Assembly (NCBI GenBank): GCA_913057245.1
Contig: CAJXNH010000017.1
Coordinates: forward strand, 1 to 64,000
From: an uncultured Phaeodactylibacter sp.
GTDB lineage: Bacteria > Bacteroidota > Bacteroidia > Chitinophagales > Saprospiraceae
DNA: 64,000 nucleotides
Direction of reading: 5' to 3'
Below, piece after piece: positions 5,582 through 15,706 of this stretch (positions are counted from its first letter, which is position 1; each line of letters starts with the position of its first letter). The notes under the pieces were generated by a model. The model saw only the letters and a program-made list of their open reading frames with translations, was not told where the DNA came from and ran no database searches. Made by a program: the position numbers and the translations under genes.

Positions 5582-6196
5582 ATGTACAGATTCTTACTGA
5601 TGTTTGCTTTAGCAGTATTTTTTACTGCTTGTGAGCAGCCCGCTAAAAGCCCGCAACAGTCTGCTCCACCAACCGGCAATGACGCCAATAAGGCTGTGAC
5701 AGAAGGATACGAGGTCACTTACATTGAGAACTCGCCGGCGCAGCGCCTAGTGAAGCGCAATGCAGAAGGTACCATCATCGAAGAAGGGATGCTTTACGAT
5801 GGCAAAAAGATTGGCGCCTGGATTGAATACGGACCGGAGGGTAAATTCCCGGCAAAGCTCACCACCTATGCAGATGGGAATTACAATGGAACTTATCTGG
5901 AGTTCAATACCCGGGGGCATATCACCCTGAGGGCTACTTATAAGAACAACAAGCTGGATGGCCCCTGGGCTGCCTATAGTTTTGGCAGGGTTGAAAAGCA
6001 GGCCAATTATAAAAATGGAGAACTCGACGGGACCTACCTCGAATATAATAGAAAAACCGGAGACCTGCAAAAAGAAGTCAATTATAAGGATGGCAAACAG
6101 CACGGCGCCTATCGTTTTTATGACGAAGGAGGCAATGTCATGTTAGAGTACGAATACCGGGATGGAGAGAAGGTCGAAGGAGGCGTAGTGGAGTAA
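5582..6196 (+). CDS. MORN-repeat lipoprotein (YwqK-like)
   Basis: 204 residues. It starts with a lipoprotein signal (MYRFLLMFALAVFF, lipobox FTAC at about 15-18), then a short linker, then successive MORN/YwqK-type units recognisable by 'DGKKIGAW', 'DGNYNGTYLEF', 'NNKLDGPW', 'NGELDGTYLEY' and 'DGKQHGAYRFY'. Such repeats are often annotated as 'antitoxin YwqK', but nothing here behaves as a toxin-antitoxin pair. It is likely a periplasm-facing or surface lipoprotein with a scaffold role. It is 27 bases after the EEP gene and probably the last gene of the dapB transcript, which ends in the hairpin at 6210-6234. Confidence 0.85.
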   Translation: MYRFLLMFALAVFFTACEQPAKSPQQSAPPTGNDANKAVTEGYEVTYIENSPAQRLVKRNAEGTIIEEGMLYDGKKIGAWIEYGPEGKFPAKLTTYADGNYNGTYLEFNTRGHITLRATYKNNKLDGPWAAYSFGRVEKQANYKNGELDGTYLEYNRKTGDLQKEVNYKDGKQHGAYRFYDEGGNVMLEYEYRDGEKVEGGVVE

Positions 6197-6641: not shown

Positions 6642-7373
6642 CTACTGCTTTAGGTATTTGCGGGGCGTCATCCCAGTCACCTCCTTGAATACTTTATAAA
6701 AGGTAGACTTATTCTTGAAGCCACATTGCCGCGCAATCCCAAATAGTGTAAGGTTATAGAACTTAGGGTCTTTTATCTTCTCTTTGACCTCCGTTACCCG
6801 ATAGAAGTTGATAAACTGCTGGAAGTTGCACTTCGCATTATGGTTGACCACCTGAGAAAGGTATTTGGTATTCGTGCTCAGCCGGTCAGCAACACTGCGT
6901 AAGGAAAGGTGAGGGTCTAAAAACAAGGACTCTTCCTCAATGACCTGTTTCATACGCAAGTAAAGCCGAAGTTCCTCCATACCTTTAAGGCTGCTGGAGC
7001 TGTACTTCTCCTCCAGGTTCAAAAGCGGAATAGGCAATTCTGTTTCCACGGCATTACCGTCAACTTCAAAAGCTATGAAATTGGTCAGGTTTTGAGACTC
7101 ATCATACACTGGGTGGATGACCAGGCGGCAGAGGTATTCCTCTCCATTCTTGCGGTAATTTGTAATTTCTCCCCGGAATGGCAGCCCATTGGTCAGCCCC
7201 TGCCGGATTTGATTAACGGCTTCGGGTTCTGTTTTCGGGCCCTGCAATATTCGACCGGGGCTTTTGCCTACCACCTCCGGTAAAGAGTAGCCGGTAATGT
7301 GCGTAAAATCATCGTTGACCCAGAGAATGCGCTTTTGAGCATTGGTTAATATGACGGCAATATTTGGAATCAT
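6642..7373 (-). CDS. PAS (LOV-like) – AraC-type helix-turn-helix regulator
   Basis: 243 residues. The N-terminal PAS domain (about 5-110) follows the LOV pattern closely: '..VNDDFTHITGYSLPEVVGK', 'ILQGPKTEPEAVNQIRQGL', 'NYRKNGEEYLCRLVIHPV'. In true LOV domains the helix before FLQG is GxNCRFLQG with the adduct-forming Cys; here it is GKSPGRILQG, so the Cys and Asn are missing, and the second flavin-contacting Asn is Cys. The C-terminus (about 145-243) is an AraC HTH pair with 'LFGIARQCGFKNKSTFYKVFKEVTGMTPRKYLK'. It is cytoplasmic and probably a ligand- or redox-sensing regulator rather than a photoreceptor. Targets are unknown. Confidence 0.85.
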   Translation of the reverse strand: MIPNIAVILTNAQKRILWVNDDFTHITGYSLPEVVGKSPGRILQGPKTEPEAVNQIRQGLTNGLPFRGEITNYRKNGEEYLCRLVIHPVYDESQNLTNFIAFEVDGNAVETELPIPLLNLEEKYSSSSLKGMEELRLYLRMKQVIEEESLFLDPHLSLRSVADRLSTNTKYLSQVVNHNAKCNFQQFINFYRVTEVKEKIKDPKFYNLTLFGIARQCGFKNKSTFYKVFKEVTGMTPRKYLKQ

Positions 7374-7652
7374 GTCGTTTTTTGTCTGTTTTGTTTAACC
7401 ATTGGTAGTGTTTGCTCTAAAAAGGTTAAACATTTGATAGCCAGATGCTTATATAAACAATATAGGGGGTTGAGCGTCCTTTTCCAAGTTTTTTCAAGCT
7501 TATTATTTTGCAGGGTACCGGAATGGCAAGCTAGGTGGATAAGATGACGCCAGGGTGATGAAGAGAGCAGGGAGATGAAAGACTTTACAAAAAAGTTATA
7601 GGTTTCGGGAAATTGGCGATAAATTAAGACCCTAACAACAGTAAGCAATACA

Positions 7653-10600
7653 ATGAAAATGCAGGCAAGTGCCCATGAGATGATTCAGTATGCCTGGAGT
7701 GAAAGTGGTACACACCTTAATACACATCCTGACTTTGAAGTTACTCTTGATTTCGTCAGCCTCCCGGACAAGCAGGGCGAATCTCTGCTGGAGCAATTGA
7801 TACAGGGCGATTTTCGAAGTGTCATAGCTACAGGTGTAGACCAGGAGCCGCGACTAAGGCAAGTGTACTTTGAAGGCCGGGCCTGGGAACGGTCACGAGG
7901 TGGGGCAGCAGTTGGCATTGGCTATCCTTTTTTTCATGATGAAGAAGCGGAATCAGGCAGGGTGGTTTTTGCTCCGCTGCTGATCTGGGAAGTACACCTG
8001 GAACCCGGAAATCAATACAATAGTCCCTGGCGCTTGTCCAGGACGCCCACTCACCGCCTGCGCCCTAATGTGTATCTTATTTCGTATTGGAAAAACAAAA
8101 CAGGAAAAGACCTTGCTCCGGTTTTTGACCGATTCCTTCACCGGCAGTCCTTTGGATTGAAACACTTACAGCATCTTTGCCAGAATATTGCTGAAGAGTT
8201 AGGCGTAACTCCTCCTTCTTTGAAAGGGGCGCCTGTGATGACGGACAGTCACGCTTTTGTCAGTGTGGAGGGCAACGGGACCTTTGTGGAGGCCGCTATT
8301 TTGAGCTGTTTTCCGCATCAGCCACCCTGTACGATTGGACTTTCTCAGGCCATTGCTGCTGACAGCGATCCCATATCGGATACTTTTGGACCTTACACGT
8401 TGGACCCTTTTCAGGCAACTGTAGCAGAACGATTACAGCAAAAGGGCAGTATATGGGCAGACGGTCACAGTGGGACAGGTAAGTCCACTTTGGGCATTCA
8501 CCTGTTGGTTAATCAACTGGCGCATGGACAACCCTGCCTTGTCGTTTCTCCCCGGACCGGCACCCTGAAGGAATACGAATCCAATATTGGTCAGCTGGGG
8601 CTTGCAAGGCTGGCTTTTCTGCTCCGTGATACTGCGGCTGATAAGATGCTAATGCTTGATATTTTGCGGGCCTCTGCCTCTAACCGCGGGGCACATCAGC
8701 CTGGTGATAGCCGGAGGCTCAGGCAAATAATGAATAAGGGGCAACGGCTCCACGCCAAGCTCACAAAGAGCTACCTGGCCTACCGGGCCACTACGGTTTC
8801 TGGTCATCCCTGGGCGGAAACAGTAGGGCAGTACCTGGAAAGCGCTCAAACGGAAGGCAAAGAACTTTTGGGCACTCAGCTCAATGCGCAGGACTATACT
8901 TTCAATGAAGATTCCTACGATGCACTCTCCGAAGTGGTGGAGCGCTGCTATCAGCTGTTTAAAAAGACCCATACCATCCGGAGCCCGCTGGGAAAGCTGA
9001 GCCCTGGTCTGTTTTTGAGAATGGAGGAAGCCGAAGCCCGGACGTTCGCACAGACACAGGTCCGGCAACTCCTGGATAAAGCCACCCGGCTGCAATTGTG
9101 GTTCATCAACCGAATTGATGCCTACGCCGATCAGCTTTCAGCTCATTACGAACAATACTACCAAAAGTTTGCCCGCCAGCTTATCGGGCTAAAGGATAAA
9201 ATGGCAGAGCGGGAGTCAGAGTATGGGAAGGAGTTTTGGAGTGCCGGAGCGGGGTCGCTTCGCGTAAAGCAGGTTTTTTCAGGCCGGGCAAAGGCACTTC
9301 GTACTGCCCGGAAAGAAATCCTGGAAGGATACCGCAAATTAAAGGAAGACTTTCAGCGACAGCCCTATTTCGATGCCGAATTCCCCAAATGGGATGAGGC
9401 AGAAATGCCCGGGCTGAACCAGTGGCTGAATGCCTTTGAAACCCGGTTGCAGCAATGGCGGATGAACCTGCGGGAGCAGGTACAAGATGAAGTCACCCGC
9501 CTCAGCCGCAAGTCCGTTAATCCCCGTTTGGGCTTTGAAAATCAAGTAGAGGAGCTAGAGGAAAGCCTTGAACGCTTACTGGATGATATCAATGAAACCG
9601 GGCTTTACCACTTGCCCCTAAGCCATAATACCCTCACGCTGCCTAAACGGCAGCGGTTCCTGGATGAGGTGGTGGAGCAGCTTGAGGAAACCAGGCGCGC
9701 CCTGTCTGAATTTGGCAACTTCTACGCCTGGCAGCGCAATTGGCTGCAGCTCGATGAGCACGCCCGGCGGATGGTCAAAGGGCTGCTAAGAGTAAAACCG
9801 GATAACTGGATGGCAGCCTTCCGGACCTGGTTCCTGGATAATGCACTCAGCCAGTCTTATGAAGCCGTATTGCCGCCAGATTTGGATGCGTTGGAAGAAT
9901 ACGCGAAAATAGCCGAACGTCTAAAAGAAGAGCTGCCCGGGCATATCCTTCAGCTCTGGCAAGCCAGAAAAGAGCAGGCGGTGCAAGATTTAAGACGTCG
10001 ACGTAAAATCGCCTACAAATGGCTGATGCAGGGCGGAGCAGTAGAAGAGCGGATACAGTTTGCCCGCCACCTGCGTACGCTGGGAGACGTCCCGATGGCT
10101 ACCAGCCCGGCTTTGTTGACGGTCCCGCATTTAGCTGAGGAGCTATTCTCAGAAAGCAAACAGTGCTTTGGCCTGGTGATTATAGAAGAAGCCCACCTGG
10201 TGCCGGCAGCTATGCTGGAGCGCTTATCCGCAATGGGGCAACGCACGCTTATGCTGAGCCCCAGAGGCTGGAATGATCAGTCGCTACAGCCTCTGGAAAT
10301 TCAGGAGGAAGTACCGGCTTTTCAGTTGCGGCACCTATATGGAACCAGCACTTTGCACTTTCGACAGGCTGCCCAACCTACCCCTGTATTGCCTACCAAA
10401 GATCAGGTGGCCTTCGAGCAGGTGGATGGGATCTATGATGAAGCGCTCGAACAAAATGATGCGGAAGCCCGCTCCGTCTTAGCCATGCTTGCTAAAATCG
10501 AAAGGACGCCACAGCGGACCTATCCTTCAGTTGGCATCGTTTGCTTTACAACCGGGCAGCGGTTGTTGCTGGCTGACTACCTGCTGGGCATCAAGCAAAG

Positions 10601-11363
10601 ACGGAGCACGGGTGTGGAGACCATTCAGCAGCTCGACCGCAATGGACTTACGTTGATGGATTTGTCAGAAGTAGAAGGGCAGAAATTTGATATTTTGATC
10701 GTCTCTGCCACTTTTGGGCCTGTAGGGCCCAACGGTCCCGTTACAGGGCATGTACACCGGCTTGATCAGCCCGGTGTACAGCAGCAGGTGGAAGCACTGA
10801 TGAGCGCAGCCCGGCAGCGCGTCTGGGTGGTCAGTTCCCTGTCTGTTGATTGGCTGGAGGAGGGCGAAAAACTGTTCGAAACCGGGCAGCGCCTGCCTGT
10901 TTACTTCTCCTTTTGGAAAGCTTGCGCCAATCATGATATATCAAAAATTGAACAACTGTCCGCCCGTTTTGCAGCCCAACTGCAACAACCGGTCGCTTTC
11001 CCGCCTCCCTACGACTTGCTCCGGCAGGTACAGCATTACCTGAGGCCTTACCTGAGCCCCGGGCGCCTGCACCTGGCAGAACGCCTATCTGATGATCAGC
11101 TTGCTTTAACGGTTGATCCGGCATCTGGCTTCTCCAGAAAGTTCGGGCTTTTAGTGGATGGCTTCAAGGCGCATACGCCCTATACCAGCTTTGCCTGGGA
11201 GGCTCAACAGCGGCAGTACTGGCAGAGACAAGGGTACGAACTCCATCAAGTCTGGTCTCCGGATTGGTGGCGCAATCCCGAGTTACAGGCCCGCAAGCTG
11301 GCGAGTATTCTGATTCAGGAAGAACCACCACTACCACTTTCAGCAGCAGAAGAGGAGGAGTAG
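7653..11363 (+). CDS. Large SF1-type helicase/ATPase with C-terminal restriction-endonuclease-fold domain
   Basis: 1236 residues, no signal peptide or membrane segment. The N-terminal ~200 residues resemble the domain preceding AAA_11 helicases ('VVFAPLLIWEVHLEP'). Walker A GHSGTGKST is at 271-279. A helical, coiled-coil-like insert of over 500 residues follows before motif II, VIIEEAH (842-848, an EEAH variant of DEAx). A C-terminal helicase half carries 'EGQKFDILIVSATFG' (from 1008) and 'LMSAARQRVWVVSSL'. The last ~100 residues ('LLVDGFKAH', 'YWQRQGYELHQVWSPDWW', W1201-W1206) match the MTES_1575/DUF559-like nuclease fold found behind such helicases. It stands alone between unrelated genes. 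Related multidomain proteins are often anti-phage; that role here is inference. The Walker residues are seen; the nuclease active site is not clearly complete. Confidence 0.75.
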   Translation: MKMQASAHEMIQYAWSESGTHLNTHPDFEVTLDFVSLPDKQGESLLEQLIQGDFRSVIATGVDQEPRLRQVYFEGRAWERSRGGAAVGIGYPFFHDEEAESGRVVFAPLLIWEVHLEPGNQYNSPWRLSRTPTHRLRPNVYLISYWKNKTGKDLAPVFDRFLHRQSFGLKHLQHLCQNIAEELGVTPPSLKGAPVMTDSHAFVSVEGNGTFVEAAILSCFPHQPPCTIGLSQAIAADSDPISDTFGPYTLDPFQATVAERLQQKGSIWADGHSGTGKSTLGIHLLVNQLAHGQPCLVVSPRTGTLKEYESNIGQLGLARLAFLLRDTAADKMLMLDILRASASNRGAHQPGDSRRLRQIMNKGQRLHAKLTKSYLAYRATTVSGHPWAETVGQYLESAQTEGKELLGTQLNAQDYTFNEDSYDALSEVVERCYQLFKKTHTIRSPLGKLSPGLFLRMEEAEARTFAQTQVRQLLDKATRLQLWFINRIDAYADQLSAHYEQYYQKFARQLIGLKDKMAERESEYGKEFWSAGAGSLRVKQVFSGRAKALRTARKEILEGYRKLKEDFQRQPYFDAEFPKWDEAEMPGLNQWLNAFETRLQQWRMNLREQVQDEVTRLSRKSVNPRLGFENQVEELEESLERLLDDINETGLYHLPLSHNTLTLPKRQRFLDEVVEQLEETRRALSEFGNFYAWQRNWLQLDEHARRMVKGLLRVKPDNWMAAFRTWFLDNALSQSYEAVLPPDLDALEEYAKIAERLKEELPGHILQLWQARKEQAVQDLRRRRKIAYKWLMQGGAVEERIQFARHLRTLGDVPMATSPALLTVPHLAEELFSESKQCFGLVIIEEAHLVPAAMLERLSAMGQRTLMLSPRGWNDQSLQPLEIQEEVPAFQLRHLYGTSTLHFRQAAQPTPVLPTKDQVAFEQVDGIYDEALEQNDAEARSVLAMLAKIERTPQRTYPSVGIVCFTTGQRLLLADYLLGIKQRRSTGVETIQQLDRNGLTLMDLSEVEGQKFDILIVSATFGPVGPNGPVTGHVHRLDQPGVQQQVEALMSAARQRVWVVSSLSVDWLEEGEKLFETGQRLPVYFSFWKACANHDISKIEQLSARFAAQLQQPVAFPPPYDLLRQVQHYLRPYLSPGRLHLAERLSDDQLALTVDPASGFSRKFGLLVDGFKAHTPYTSFAWEAQQRQYWQRQGYELHQVWSPDWWRNPELQARKLASILIQEEPPLPLSAAEEEE

Positions 11364-11493: not shown

Positions 11494-14346
11494 ATGATGA
11501 GGAATAAGCTGATTTTATGGATCGTAGGATTGAGTTTGGTATGGTCTTGCCAAAAGGAAGCTCCTTTGCCCGATGTGGAACTACCCGGGTTATCCCTCTT
11601 TTTACAAGCTAGTCCTCCGGGAATTGATCAGTACCTGAAGGAAAAAACAACGGATGAAAAGCTGCAGCAGTTATTGATACTGAAAACGGATGCAGCTCAG
11701 TTAAGTGCGGCCCGCCTGGGAGCGGCTTCCGGGTGTTGGCTTACTGCAGCTACTCCGGATGATCTGGACCGTATAGACCGTCTTTGGGAAACCCGGGCTT
11801 CCTTCCCACCTTTTAAGGTGACTGAGCCTAATCGTTTGCCTAACTATCTTTTTGGAGCGCAACAAGTATTCCCTTCCTTCGCAGCGATTTCTTCAATTGG
11901 AGACGATAGCCTTCGTATCCGGTTGGAACAAGCCTATATTCATCAGGCGAATGCATTGCAGCTGAGCTGGCTAAGTTTGCCTGGTTATGGCATGGAAGGG
12001 GGCGCTACCTTGCTTCCAGAGGCCGGTATTCAGCATCAGGCGCGCTGGATCAACCAAATGAATAAAGCACATTTACTATCTGTAGCGGCTCCTTTTTCAG
12101 ATACAGACTTACTTTCGGTAGATACCACCAACGCTTTTCTCAAGTCCTTAGCCTACCATAAAACTTTAGTTGAAGCGGGTTTGAGTGGTTTCTGGCTGCC
12201 GGTGGAACAACTCGGGCGGAGTGGCCGCCTGGCAGATCTCTTTCGTAACCGGCTTCAGTTTGGCGGGCTGCTCATCGCAGAGGTAAAGGCAGAATCCCAA
12301 ATCGCCAACTGGCTCGAACAGGATGTTGACTTGCTGGTGATTGAGGCGGATCAATACACAACGGCGCTGAAAGCGTTGAAGCAAGCCTACCGCAGAGGCG
12401 TACTCAGCGAAGAACGGCTCCATCAAAAGCTGACAAGAATTCTTAAAGCCCGGGCATGGGCAGCGGAGAAACCGGAGCCAGAGCCCCATCCTGCTGCCTC
12501 AAAACCAGCGTTGGAGGCTTCTGTAGCGGGCGCAACGGTGGAAACACCGCCTGAACGGCTTTCCAGAGCAGAATATTTCAGTGCCACAAGCTGGCCGGTA
12601 TGGCAGCGCAAAGCCTATGCTTCTTCGATTGTCCTGGCCGCCAACCCGGAGCAGCGGGTCCCCCTCGAAGCAGGGGAGAAAGGCTGGACGATTCTGCACC
12701 TGCCAGGGACGGTCTACGACAGGCACTTCGAACAGCGCTTTGGACACTATGCCAATTACCGGTTGGTGCGCTCCTGGGCAGAAGCAGCCACTGCCGACCG
12801 CCTTGTTGTATTGCTGGATCAGTACCGTTTGCAAGCACCGGACCTGGGGCAGTTGAACCGCATCCGGCAGCAGGCAGAAGTGGTGGTGGTCAACCTTGGG
12901 CACCCGGTCAACCTTCAACAGCTGAGCCGGAGTGAGGTGGTGGTACAGGCTTTTGGTAACAGCGATCTGGAGAAAGAACTGACGGCACAGCTCCTCTTCG
13001 GAGGGATTGCTGCGAAGGGGCGGTTACCATTAACCTACAGCCCTGATTTCCTGATTGGGCAGGGGGAGAAAACAGCGTCCGTACGCCTGGAGTATGCCTT
13101 GCCTCAGCAGGTGGGCATCTTGCCCGAACGCTTAGTGGGCATTGACGCGATTGTGCAGTCAGCTATTGACGAGGGGGCAACGCCCGGGGCACAGGTGCTG
13201 GTCGCGAAATCCGGGAAGGTCATTTATAATAAGGCTTTTGGCCATCATACCTACAAAAAGGAACAGAAGACAAGGCGCTCAGATCTATACGATGTGGCCT
13301 CCATTACGAAAATCGCTGCGACTACCCTGATGGCGATGCAACAGTATGAAGCCGGTCAGTTGGAGCCCAAAGACCACCTCCGGGAACATTTGGACCTGGC
13401 CTCCAACAGCCGCTTGGGTAACCTGACGCTGCAAAAGTTGATGACCCATCGCAGTGGATTGCAACCCCACTTGCCGGTAATCCCTTATTTGCTTGCCCGC
13501 GAAGTTGATAACGATAACTGCACTAATTATTTTTGCAAAACAAGCTCACCGGAATTTGCCGTGCCGGTATCGAAGAACTTCTTTTTCTCGACCCGGTTTC
13601 ATGATAAGATTTGGGAAGACATGCAACGCCTGCGCGGCCGCCGCACCCGTTACCGCTACAGCGACGCCAATTTTGTGCTGACCCAACGGGTGGTGGAAGC
13701 TTTGGGCGGTCATCGACTCGATACACTCGCAGCTATGCACTTTTACGAGCCTCTTGGGCTGCGATTTACCCGCTTTACGCCGCTTGCGCACTACCCTGCA
13801 GATCAGATTGTACCTACAGAAGATGATTACCGCTGGCGGCATCAGCTGGTGCATGGGTTTGTGCATGATGAAACAGCGGCGCTTTTGGGGGGCGTGGCCG
13901 GGCATGCGGGCCTGTTTAGCAACGCGGAAGACCTGGCGGTGTTGTTCCAGATGCTCCTCAATGGCGGTACTTATGGCGGGCAGCAGTTCCTGGAGCCGGA
14001 GACGATTGAGTATTTCACCAGCGCCGATCATGGCAACCACCGTGGGCTGGGCTTTGATAAACCAGAGGAAGAGGATATCGAAGAGGGCGGCTATCCGGAA
14101 GCTATAAGTGAACGAACCTATGGGCATACCGGGTTTACAGGTACTTGTGTCTGGGTTGATCCGGATGAGGAACTCATTTACATTTTCCTGTCCAATCGTA
14201 TCCACCCCGACCGTAATAACCGCAAGCTTTTTAAAGAAAAAGTCCGGGAGCGTATCCATAACGTTATTTACGATGCCTTGGATACGTTTGAGCCGGAATG
14301 GCCGGAAATGGAACGCCCGCTAGCCTCAGTCCAAAATCCCCTCTAG
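11494..14346 (+). CDS. Lipoprotein: degenerate GH3 glycosidase domain fused to a beta-lactamase-like serine hydrolase
   Basis: 950 residues. The lipoprotein signal has lipobox VWSC (Cys at about 19). Residues ~30-330 resemble a GH3 (NagZ-type) barrel by its tail ('FGGLLIAEV', 'DLLVIEADQYTTALKALKQAY', 'GVLSEERLHQKLTRIL'), but the family's KHFPGHG block is unrecognisable ('APFSDTD') and the nucleophile position reads AEV instead of TDA. A GH3 C-terminal alpha/beta domain follows. From about 540 there is a class-C beta-lactamase/esterase fold with SITK (Ser-x-x-Lys), YSDANF (Tyr-Ser-Asp/Asn) and GHTGFTGT. The fusion is frequent in Bacteroidota and presumably acts on cell-wall fragments at the envelope. 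Its 3' end overlaps the convergent amidase gene by 21 bases. Confidence 0.85.
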   Translation: MMRNKLILWIVGLSLVWSCQKEAPLPDVELPGLSLFLQASPPGIDQYLKEKTTDEKLQQLLILKTDAAQLSAARLGAASGCWLTAATPDDLDRIDRLWETRASFPPFKVTEPNRLPNYLFGAQQVFPSFAAISSIGDDSLRIRLEQAYIHQANALQLSWLSLPGYGMEGGATLLPEAGIQHQARWINQMNKAHLLSVAAPFSDTDLLSVDTTNAFLKSLAYHKTLVEAGLSGFWLPVEQLGRSGRLADLFRNRLQFGGLLIAEVKAESQIANWLEQDVDLLVIEADQYTTALKALKQAYRRGVLSEERLHQKLTRILKARAWAAEKPEPEPHPAASKPALEASVAGATVETPPERLSRAEYFSATSWPVWQRKAYASSIVLAANPEQRVPLEAGEKGWTILHLPGTVYDRHFEQRFGHYANYRLVRSWAEAATADRLVVLLDQYRLQAPDLGQLNRIRQQAEVVVVNLGHPVNLQQLSRSEVVVQAFGNSDLEKELTAQLLFGGIAAKGRLPLTYSPDFLIGQGEKTASVRLEYALPQQVGILPERLVGIDAIVQSAIDEGATPGAQVLVAKSGKVIYNKAFGHHTYKKEQKTRRSDLYDVASITKIAATTLMAMQQYEAGQLEPKDHLREHLDLASNSRLGNLTLQKLMTHRSGLQPHLPVIPYLLAREVDNDNCTNYFCKTSSPEFAVPVSKNFFFSTRFHDKIWEDMQRLRGRRTRYRYSDANFVLTQRVVEALGGHRLDTLAAMHFYEPLGLRFTRFTPLAHYPADQIVPTEDDYRWRHQLVHGFVHDETAALLGGVAGHAGLFSNAEDLAVLFQMLLNGGTYGGQQFLEPETIEYFTSADHGNHRGLGFDKPEEEDIEEGGYPEAISERTYGHTGFTGTCVWVDPDEELIYIFLSNRIHPDRNNRKLFKEKVRERIHNVIYDALDTFEPEWPEMERPLASVQNPL

Positions 14347-15564
14347 CAGCCAATCGGCGAGTGCCTGTCGGTTGCTTTCCAGAATGACCCGCTGCTGGTC
14401 GAACTTATTCCTGATATTAGCCAGTTCGATGTAGACGGAAGGCGTGAGTGTTTCGCGGAGCATGTGCAGGTCGCGTGGAGTGACCGTGCCATGGTACTGG
14501 CCGTTGGCGCGGTACTTACGGTACTTTTTGCGCAGTGCACGCTGTAGGTCGAGGGCAACGGTTTTGCTCTCTGAGCTGGTCGGATGATAGTAGAAAAAGA
14601 CGTCTTTACGCTCTCCTTTGCTCCGGGAGTCCACATGCACGATGATGGTTGTTTGTTCGGCAACCCCTGCGGCCTTATTTTTTTCGTATAGCTCGTTGAT
14701 GGCATTGGACCGCTGGAACAGCCGGGGCTTTTGTTGCCGCATGATTTTCTGCCCGCCCCAGACCACTTCGTCATAGTCGCAGTCCAGGAATTTGTCGCTT
14801 CGTATCCCATCGTTGTCGTCGCGGATGATCATATAGGCGGTAGCGCCATGGGCGACCAGGTTCCGGCAGAGGCGCAGGGCTACATCATAGGCGTATTCAT
14901 CTTCACAAAGGCTGTAGGTGCCACGCCGGCCTATGGCGCCAGGGTCCGGGCCGCCATGCCCGCTTACGATATAGAAAACCTTGCCTTTGAGGCGGGTGCT
15001 TTCCAGGGGAGTGTAGGCATATTTAGGGCCGAAAATAGGGAACCGGCGATTGCCGCCACCGGATTTGTCTGAAGCTTCCTCAGGCTGCCGCTCGGTTACT
15101 GGCTCCGGAATTTTGAGGTCGGCCTCCGGGCAGTACAGCTCATGGTAGGGCACCCAAAGGACGCGGTTGGCTTTGAAGGATTGCTCGCGCTGTTTTTCTG
15201 CCAGCATACGCTCGTTGTAGTCCTGGATCCGCACGGCAAGGTTCCAGTCATCTATGCCGATGGTGGACCGTATAGTGCGCCCGTTGAACTCATACAGGAG
15301 GATGGGCAACTCATAGGTCCGTCCAACAATGAGATGCGAATTTTTCTTGAGATTGTTGAGGGTGTAAAACTTGGTGAAATTGCAGGAATTGCCGTCCAGC
15401 CCGTACCGCCGCATGATCGCGTAAATCCCATCACCGGACACGGCTTTGACCGTAAAATACCGGTTGCTTTCCGGTACAGTAGCTTTTGGGAGTTGAGCTT
15501 GAGCTGGCTGTACGGTCAGCCAGTAAGTCATTAGTATTGTCAGGGATAGAATTTTCTGCATCAT
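14326..15564 (-). CDS. Exported N-acetylmuramoyl-L-alanine amidase (Amidase_3)
   Basis: 412 residues from the chosen ATG. A signal peptide (MMQKILSLTILMTYWLTVQPAQA) ends at AQA-Q. A LysM-like or novel N-terminal region of ~170 residues follows ('GDGIYAIMRRYGL', 'LIVGRTYELPILLY'). The Amidase_3 catalytic domain begins at 'FYIVSGHGGPDPGAIG' (zinc His), with a second ligand Glu in 'CEDEYAYDVALRL', 'IIVHVDS' (His) and C-terminal 'PSVYIELANIRN' (catalytic Glu). It hydrolyses the amide bond between MurNAc and L-Ala in periplasmic peptidoglycan. An in-frame ATG at 15585 would add seven residues and is the main alternative start. It is convergent with, and functionally adjacent to, the serine-hydrolase fusion. 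Confidence 0.9.
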   Translation of the reverse strand: MMQKILSLTILMTYWLTVQPAQAQLPKATVPESNRYFTVKAVSGDGIYAIMRRYGLDGNSCNFTKFYTLNNLKKNSHLIVGRTYELPILLYEFNGRTIRSTIGIDDWNLAVRIQDYNERMLAEKQREQSFKANRVLWVPYHELYCPEADLKIPEPVTERQPEEASDKSGGGNRRFPIFGPKYAYTPLESTRLKGKVFYIVSGHGGPDPGAIGRRGTYSLCEDEYAYDVALRLCRNLVAHGATAYMIIRDDNDGIRSDKFLDCDYDEVVWGGQKIMRQQKPRLFQRSNAINELYEKNKAAGVAEQTTIIVHVDSRSKGERKDVFFYYHPTSSESKTVALDLQRALRKKYRKYRANGQYHGTVTPRDLHMLRETLTPSVYIELANIRNKFDQQRVILESNRQALADWLLEGILD

Positions 15565-15644
15565 CGCAAACCCTTTGTAGTCCATATTAATGACTACCAG
15601 TTCATTTTGGTTTATACGCAACACGAAGTGTTTTGCAACATCGG

Positions 15645-15706
15645 CCACTGACGAAGCGTAGCTTGTCAGGACAGGCCACTAACGAGGCATAGCTTGTCAG
15701 GGCAAG
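15645..15706. repeat. Two tandem 31-base imperfect repeats
   Basis: 15645-15675 and 15676-15706 differ at about six positions; both begin CCACT and contain TAGCTTGTCAGG. They lie in the gap between the divergent amidase and ccmB genes. Function unknown; the tandem arrangement fits slippage or a short intergenic repeat unit. Confidence 0.7.

What the first reader, a model, noticed from the sequence alone, without database searches (positions are those of the whole stretch)
7653..11363. Orphan 1236-residue helicase with a >500-residue helical insert and C-terminal nuclease fold
Walker A (271-279) and an EEAH motif II (842-848) are separated by more than 560 residues of helical sequence, against a far shorter distance in ordinary SF1 helicases, and the chain ends in an MTES_1575/DUF559-like restriction-endonuclease fold. 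The gene has no partner. Related multidomain proteins act in phage defence, so a single-gene defence system is a reasonable hypothesis; the family match of both ends is from pattern memory, and the function is inference.
Basis: partly seen in the sequence, partly recalled or inferred. Interest (0 to 1): 0.62.

Follow-up and report, generated by a model that had tools for sequence, protein, structure and literature searches.

The report
Degenerate helicase-nuclease, likely catalytically dead
This large gene keeps the shape of an anti-phage helicase-nuclease, but its lineage has lost most of the catalytic residues and it sits at a conserved chromosomal site among ordinary genes, so it is probably a repurposed non-enzyme rather than a one-gene phage defence.

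Summary
The ORF (7653-11363, 1236 aa) is real and intact. AlphaFold predicts a Upf1-like SF1 helicase shell with a ~475-residue helical insert and a C-terminal endonuclease-like domain. The long insert is a family trait: Walker A to motif II is 574 residues here, 471-587 in catalytically canonical relatives, 637 in Hhe/ProA-like proteins.

The surprise lies elsewhere. The protein belongs to a well-supported clade in its own Bacteroidota family (Phaeodactylibacter, Lewinella, other Saprospiraceae) whose catalytic residues are eroded. None of 56 near-full-length members keeps all six diagnostic ATPase residues (25/25 in the canonical set), and none keeps the nuclease D-E-D set (12/25). Every relative examined outside that family is canonical. 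The gene is under purifying selection (dN/dS ~0.1). In many genera it occupies one conserved slot (MORN lipoprotein, divergent PAS-AraC, GH3/beta-lactamase, amidase). In some that slot holds 711-797-aa versions without RecA2 or a P-loop. No phage or viral relatives were found.

Best reading: a pseudo-helicase/pseudo-nuclease derived from a ProA/Hhe-like anti-phage enzyme and kept, vertically, for a binding or scaffolding role. The single-gene defence hypothesis is not supported. Loss of activity and the present function are inferred, not measured.

The parts
7653..11363 (+). Whole gene: 1236-aa pseudo-helicase/pseudo-nuclease
   Evidence: ORF; orthologues 90-92% identical in two Phaeodactylibacter-type genomes, dN/dS 0.07-0.11
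7653..8342 (+). N-terminal beta-rich domain (residues 1-230), aligned with the part of UPF1 before RecA1; DUF4011-like trace
   Evidence: AF2 model and VIA alignment; DUF4011 E=0.054, not significant
8463..8486 (+). Walker A GHSGTGKS (271-278), intact here; K and S/T both kept in 41 of 56 near-full-length clade members
8628..10052 (+). Helical insert (residues 326-800) within RecA1; kept in the 711-797-aa short forms
   Evidence: AF2, column information, hhalign of short forms to residues 245-827, E=1.5e-75
10185..10196 (+). Motif II EEAH (845-848): catalytic Glu kept, first Asp replaced by Glu
10236..10271 (+). Motif III position (862-873): canonical SGDxxQMPP replaced by GQRTLMLSPRGW (Gln lost)
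10557..10562 (+). Motif IV Q969-R970, kept in 54 and 55 of 56 near-full-length members
10623..10646 (+). IQQLDRNG (991-998), conserved block in RecA2
10674..10691 (+). Motif Va: canonical QGDERD replaced by EGQKFD (Glu to Lys1011); 1 of 56 clade members keeps the Glu
10803..10814 (+). Motif VI: canonical TRAR/TRAK replaced by SAAR (arginine finger to Ala1052)
10950..11306 (+). C-terminal MTES_1575/Vsr-like endonuclease domain; catalytic Asp to Ala and Glu to Leu1167, Asp1169 and the WWRNP block kept
11346..11360 (+). Acidic C-terminal tail AEEEE; 16 of 56 clade members end in an acidic run (1 of 25 canonical)
6642..7373 (-). Divergent PAS-AraC regulator, conserved syntenic neighbour of full-length and short forms
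5582..6196 (+). MORN-repeat lipoprotein, conserved syntenic neighbour
11494..14346 (+). GH3/beta-lactamase-like protein, conserved downstream neighbour
14326..15648 (-). N-acetylmuramoyl-L-alanine amidase, conserved syntenic neighbour; abuts PAS-AraC where the gene is absent (G023)

Best explanation
The gene encodes a vertically inherited pseudo-helicase/pseudo-nuclease. Its ancestor was a ProA/Hhe/PDC-S37-type enzyme: a Upf1-like SF1 helicase with a ~470-residue helical insert in RecA1 and a C-terminal MTES_1575 nuclease. In one lineage within its Bacteroidota family the motif Va glutamate was lost early and other ATPase and nuclease residues were lost repeatedly, while the folded shell, and above all the helical insert, stayed under selection. 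The window protein may still bind ATP (Walker A, catalytic Glu and motif IV Gln/Arg kept) but should hydrolyse it poorly or not couple hydrolysis to unwinding (motif III Gln, motif Va Glu and arginine finger lost), and it should not cut DNA. Most likely mechanism: a binding scaffold or switch, in which the helical insert and RecA2 surface hold a partner protein or nucleic acid and the nuclease fold serves as a binding module. Shown here: fold prediction, residue losses, single clade, purifying selection, conserved slot, shortened forms in the same slot. Inferred: loss of activity, scaffold role, descent from a defence enzyme.
For: Catalytic census: all six diagnostic ATPase residues in 25/25 canonical, 0/56 near-full-length degenerate and 0/13 short or truncated proteins; nuclease D-E-D 12/25 against 0/56. 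The degenerate set is one clade, SH-aLRT 100, both unrooted and rooted on Hhe/ProA-like proteins with canonical helicase motifs. Relatives examined in other families of the order and in eight genomes outside the class have canonical helicase motifs. dN/dS 0.07-0.11 overall, in the range of the neighbours, with the P-loop segment loosest (0.17-0.27) and the insert at 0.09-0.10. Mean column information: canonical RecA1b 3.24 and insert 1.83; degenerate RecA1b 1.49 and insert 1.87. Conserved slot, also occupied by 711-797-aa forms; a profile of short forms aligns to residues 245-827 (E=1.5e-75), and one is modelled with an endonuclease-like C-terminal fold (Z 9.9, 2.3 A over 89 residues, 3hrl) though short forms have no Pfam or PADLOC match. 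Model of residues 21-1220: pLDDT 85, UPF1 Z 15.4. No relative in viral contigs or phages. Bacterial precedent: Deinococcus PriA, a pseudohelicase shown to lack ATP hydrolysis and unwinding but to bind DNA (PMC4504706).
Against: The window protein keeps K277, S278, E846, Q969 and R970, and 7 of 56 clade members keep Walker A Lys, motif II Glu, motif III Gln and motif VI Arg together, so ATPase activity is possible in some. Canonical and degenerate were labelled by motif residues and motif columns were not removed from the tree; the quick tree method was used and several branches are long. The absence of the gene in G023 shows dispensability, which also fits a defence gene. Of roughly 78 degenerate loci with context, 36 besides the window show at least one of the marker neighbours, 22 at least two and 12 at least three, so the slot is shown for part of the clade only. 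No activity was measured.
Confidence: 0.55

Rival explanations
1. Active single-gene anti-phage defence: the helicase senses phage DNA and the C-terminal nuclease cuts it.
For: Distant match to PDC-S37, ProA and Hhe; some canonical relatives lie beside type I methyltransferase, LmuB or HerA-type genes.
Against: Nuclease Asp and Glu replaced, arginine finger, motif III Gln and motif Va Glu lost; conserved slot among ordinary genes; 124 neighbours of degenerate members gave six mostly generic PADLOC families, against 161 for 117 neighbours of canonical members (the 161 come largely from a few proteins).
Confidence: 0.08
2. Non-enzymatic defence role: a sensor, decoy or partner of another immune protein that needs binding but not catalysis.
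For: Kinship to anti-phage proteins; patchy presence and absence from the slot in one genome; some genomes carry a canonical paralogue as well (L117 with L118, L111 with L112).
Against: No defence-gene block beside it, no phage or viral copies, conserved synteny across genera; in the family search most genomes have one match only.
Confidence: 0.14
3. An active but divergent NTPase/translocase that has lost unwinding and nuclease activity yet still hydrolyses ATP.
For: Walker A Lys, motif II Glu and motif IV Gln-Arg kept in the window protein; RecA2 is among the most constrained domains in the Phaeodactylibacter trio (dN/dS 0.04-0.07).
Against: Arginine finger, motif III Gln and motif Va Glu lost; other proteins of the same clade lack even the P-loop (L068, L069, L114).
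Confidence: 0.17
4. A decaying gene on its way out, without function.
For: Broad motif loss; shortened versions and absence from the slot in one genome.
Against: Intact reading frames in nearly all members, dN/dS ~0.1, close to neighbouring genes.
Confidence: 0.03

Closest known systems
Anti-phage protein ProA (NCBIfam NF058533) and PADLOC candidate PDC-S37
   Same: Best library matches of the window protein (5e-24 and 2.4e-18, over RecA2); canonical relatives match these models at 1e-99 or better, over RecA2 through the nuclease.
   Different: Window scores 83.9 bits against a cut-off of 1500; shorter than the models (1903 and 1550 positions); catalytic residues lost; no defence context.
Hhe, DUF4011 domain-containing anti-phage protein (NF042953, PDLC02194)
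   Same: SF1 helicase with Vsr/MTES_1575-type C-terminal domain; Hhe/ProA-like proteins used as outgroup here have a RecA1 insert of similar length (637 residues between motifs).
   Different: The Hhe models are about 1800-1900 positions; window scores 34.6 bits against a cut-off of 2000; DUF4011 match here not significant.
UPF1-like SF1 helicases (UPF1, Aquarius, Dna2, Ighmbp2)
   Same: Overall helicase fold of the model (Z 14-15).
   Different: Long helical insert, C-terminal nuclease-like domain, lost motif III, Va and VI residues.
Deinococcus radiodurans PriA pseudohelicase; AddB (helicase-inactive half of AddAB, from general knowledge)
   Same: Helicase fold kept without helicase activity, used for binding (tested for PriA; only predicted here).
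   Different: Other helicase families; no known partner or substrate here.

Membership tests
ProA/Hhe/PDC-S37 anti-phage helicase-nuclease | Score above the curated NCBIfam cut-offs (ProA 1500 bits, Hhe 2000 bits) | tested here: not met
   83.9 and 34.6 bits
ProA/Hhe/PDC-S37 anti-phage helicase-nuclease | Common ancestry with that family | tested here: met
   PDC-S37 2.4e-18, ProA 5e-24; canonical relatives bridge the gap; rooted tree
ProA/Hhe/PDC-S37 anti-phage helicase-nuclease | Phage protection | not testable with these tools
   No phenotype data
ProA/Hhe/PDC-S37 anti-phage helicase-nuclease | Defence or mobile genomic context | tested here: not met
   Conserved slot among ordinary genes; neighbour PADLOC scan; no phage or viral relatives
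SF1 (UPF1-like) helicase | Two RecA domains of UPF1-like fold | tested here: met
   AF2 pLDDT 85; UPF1 Z 15.4, 464 residues aligned, rmsd 4.9
SF1 (UPF1-like) helicase | Complete motifs I, II, III, IV, Va, VI | tested here: not met
   Motifs I and IV kept, II altered with Glu kept, III, Va and VI residues lost
MTES_1575/Vsr-like restriction endonuclease domain | Pfam gathering score | tested here: not met
   26.3 bits against 38.2; canonical relatives reach 37.5-90.5
MTES_1575/Vsr-like restriction endonuclease domain | Fold | tested here: inconclusive
   Secondary structure fits; fold match shown for a short homologue (Z 9.9 to 3hrl), not separately for the window domain
MTES_1575/Vsr-like restriction endonuclease domain | Catalytic Asp and Glu | tested here: not met
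   Asp to Ala, Glu to Leu, one Asp kept

The most novel reading that the evidence does not exclude
An anti-phage helicase-nuclease was domesticated once in this Bacteroidota family into a vertically inherited chromosomal gene. Natural variants at one orthologous slot, from about 1240 aa with partial motifs down to 711-797 aa with neither P-loop nor RecA2, record the stripping of catalysis while the helical insert, formerly an accessory element, became the functional core.
Probability: 0.4. Interest if true: 0.68.

Novelty: new variant of a known kind. Interest (0 to 1): 0.52.

Why it matters
Large helicase-nuclease genes are readily counted as defence systems from profile matches. This clade shows that such a gene can be inherited at a conserved chromosomal site with eroded active sites, so such calls would mislead here. 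It also offers a natural series of shortened variants that points to the helical insert, a part of Hhe/ProA-type proteins for which no function was found in the papers searched, as the piece worth testing. What it binds could explain what the insert does in the active defence enzymes as well. No earlier description of this clade was found in the papers searched.

Tried and rejected
Insert as a unique oddity: rejected, the P-loop to motif II spacing is a family trait. Pseudogene: disfavoured by dN/dS and intact frames. Phage or plasmid origin: no relative in viral contigs or phage records, one distant plasmid match in Flammeovirga. A conserved inverted repeat (TGTTTAAC-N25-GTTAAACA) upstream was considered as an operator of this gene; it also occurs upstream of PAS-AraC in a genome where this gene lies elsewhere (L213), so it more likely belongs to the regulator. 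Net charge per domain gave no clear sign for or against nucleic-acid binding. The first collection scan with alignment A2 failed for lack of conserved stretches; a closer set (A3) worked. A first dN/dS script crashed after four pairs and the neighbours were done in a second one. Foldseek of the short form gave no significant PDB match. The canonical copy L076 also has a MORN lipoprotein nearby, but on the other side and in the other orientation, so it was not counted as the same slot. Papers on PDC-S37 or ProA, or on the mechanism of DUF4011 helicases, were not found.
Full report
1. The observation. Walker A GHSGTGKS is at 271-278 and IIEEAH at 843-848. Pfam sees only weak signals: MTES_1575 at 7.8e-6 but below its cut-off, AAA_22 and DEAD fragments, DUF4011 not significant. 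PADLOC gives PDC-S37 at 2.4e-18 over RecA2 and Hhe at 4e-4. NCBIfam gives anti-phage ProA at 5e-24 and Hhe at 3.6e-9, both far under the curated cut-offs. By sequence no solved structure matched convincingly. The window lies in a draft Bacteroidota genome; its closest named relative is Phaeodactylibacter xiamenensis (90% identical protein), then P. luteus (43%).

2. Structure. AlphaFold on residues 21-1220 with a 61-row alignment gave mean pLDDT 85.4 and pTM 0.75: a beta-rich N-terminal domain, RecA1 interrupted by a long helical insert, RecA2, and a C-terminal alpha/beta domain. Foldseek and VIA-align place the helicase part with UPF1, Aquarius, Dna2 and Ighmbp2 (Z 14-15). The listed matches do not cover the last 125 model residues, so for the window protein the nuclease fold rests on the Pfam match and the secondary structure.

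3. The insert is a family trait. Measured from motif start to motif start, six canonical relatives have 471-587 residues between P-loop and motif II, and three Hhe/ProA-like proteins of 1934-1936 aa have 637. The window's 574 is ordinary in that company. Five canonical relatives match AAA_11, AAA_12 and MTES_1575, four of them above all three Pfam cut-offs, and PDC-S37 at 1e-99 or better.

4. Erosion of active sites. In an alignment of 102 relatives, 25 proteins keep all six diagnostic ATPase features (Walker A Lys with Ser/Thr, motif II Glu, motif III Gln, motif Va Glu, motif VI Arg). Of 56 near-full-length proteins of the window's clade none does: motif Va Glu survives in 1, motif III Gln in 14, motif VI Arg in 21, motif II Glu in 34, the P-loop in 41. 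Motif IV Arg survives in 55. The nuclease Asp-Glu-Asp set is complete in 12 of 25 canonical proteins and in none of the 56. In the window protein motif III reads MLSPRGW, motif Va EGQKFD, motif VI SAAR, and the nuclease Asp and Glu are Ala and Leu.

5. One clade. The degenerate proteins form one side of a branch with SH-aLRT 100 in an 89-row tree and stay one clade (SH-aLRT 100) when a 62-row tree is rooted on Hhe/ProA-like proteins with canonical helicase motifs. Caveats: quick method, long branches, motif columns not removed, labels taken from motif residues. All relatives examined from other families of the order are canonical, as are the helicase motifs of those in eight genomes outside the class from a 395-genome sample of the phylum. 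Within the window's family 102 of 216 good genomes carry a match of either kind.

6. Selection. Among the window protein and its two 90-92% identical orthologues dN/dS is 0.09-0.11 (YN00) or about 0.07 (NG86), in the range of the neighbouring genes (0.02-0.14, NG86). The P-loop segment is the loosest part (0.17-0.27), RecA2 is among the tightest (0.04-0.07), the insert is at 0.09-0.10. Across the families, RecA1b drops from 3.24 to 1.49 bits per column between canonical and degenerate sets while the insert stays at 1.83 and 1.87. Nearly invariant positions of the degenerate set include Trp602, Trp693, Trp697, Trp719 and Trp726 in the insert and Gln969-Arg970 in RecA2.

7. Location. The neighbours in the window are MutS, DapB, an endonuclease/exonuclease/phosphatase-family protein, a MORN lipoprotein, a divergent PAS-AraC regulator, a GH3/beta-lactamase-like protein and an amidase (the MORN name is from the repeat pattern, no Pfam hit). 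The lipoprotein recurs at 26 loci and PAS-AraC at 18 in the first set. Counting the markers, 36 degenerate loci besides the window show at least one, 22 at least two and 12 at least three, with matching order and orientation in many genera. Short forms of 711-797 aa sit in the same slot (L119, L120, L146-L150, L152). In one genome of the same genus as L119 the gene is absent and PAS-AraC is directly followed by the amidase. Many other clade members show none of these markers, so the slot is established for part of the clade.

8. Short forms. A profile of twelve short proteins aligns with residues 245-827 of the window protein at E=1.5e-75: the N-terminal domain is gone, the P-loop region is a remnant and the insert is kept. 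The model of one (759 aa, pLDDT 76) ends in a domain that matches a putative endonuclease-like structure (3hrl, Z 9.9, 2.3 A over 89 residues). Pfam and PADLOC find nothing in two short forms, NCBIfam nothing in one.

9. Defence link. Tblastn found no relative in 50,697 phage records and one distant plasmid match; the viral contig scan found none. PADLOC on 124 neighbours of degenerate members gave six families, mostly generic; 117 neighbours of canonical members gave 161, which come largely from a few proteins, among them a type I methyltransferase (L164), LmuB (L122) and HerA (L161). This contrast is suggestive, not a formal test.

10. Conclusion. The best-supported reading is a pseudo-helicase/pseudo-nuclease kept for binding. 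Catalytic loss is inferred from residues, not measured; a bacterial precedent with measured loss is Deinococcus PriA (PMC4504706). The partner or ligand is unknown.

Noticed in passing
window 7396-7440: Inverted repeat TGTTTAAC-N25-GTTAAACA between PAS-AraC and the gene, present in several relatives and also upstream of PAS-AraC in L213 where this gene lies elsewhere; probably an operator of the regulator.
   Followed up: partly
L117 7462-11931: A canonical relative of 1490 aa carries an N-terminal GYF_2 and a C-terminal GreA/GreB domain, an unusual fusion.
   Followed up: no
L111 2008-11406 and L113 1792-11394: Two canonical paralogues (about 1340 and 1755 aa) lie in tandem on the same strand.
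   Followed up: no
L073 6671-9748, L075 7952-11026, L110 7663-10674, L112 6822-9941, L128 1484-4519: About 1000-1040-aa members of the clade lack RecA2 but keep the C-terminal nuclease-like domain; in some genomes they coexist with a canonical copy.
   Followed up: partly
window 11346-11360: Acidic C-terminal tail (EEEE) in 16 of 56 clade members against 1 of 25 canonical; meaning unknown.
   Followed up: no
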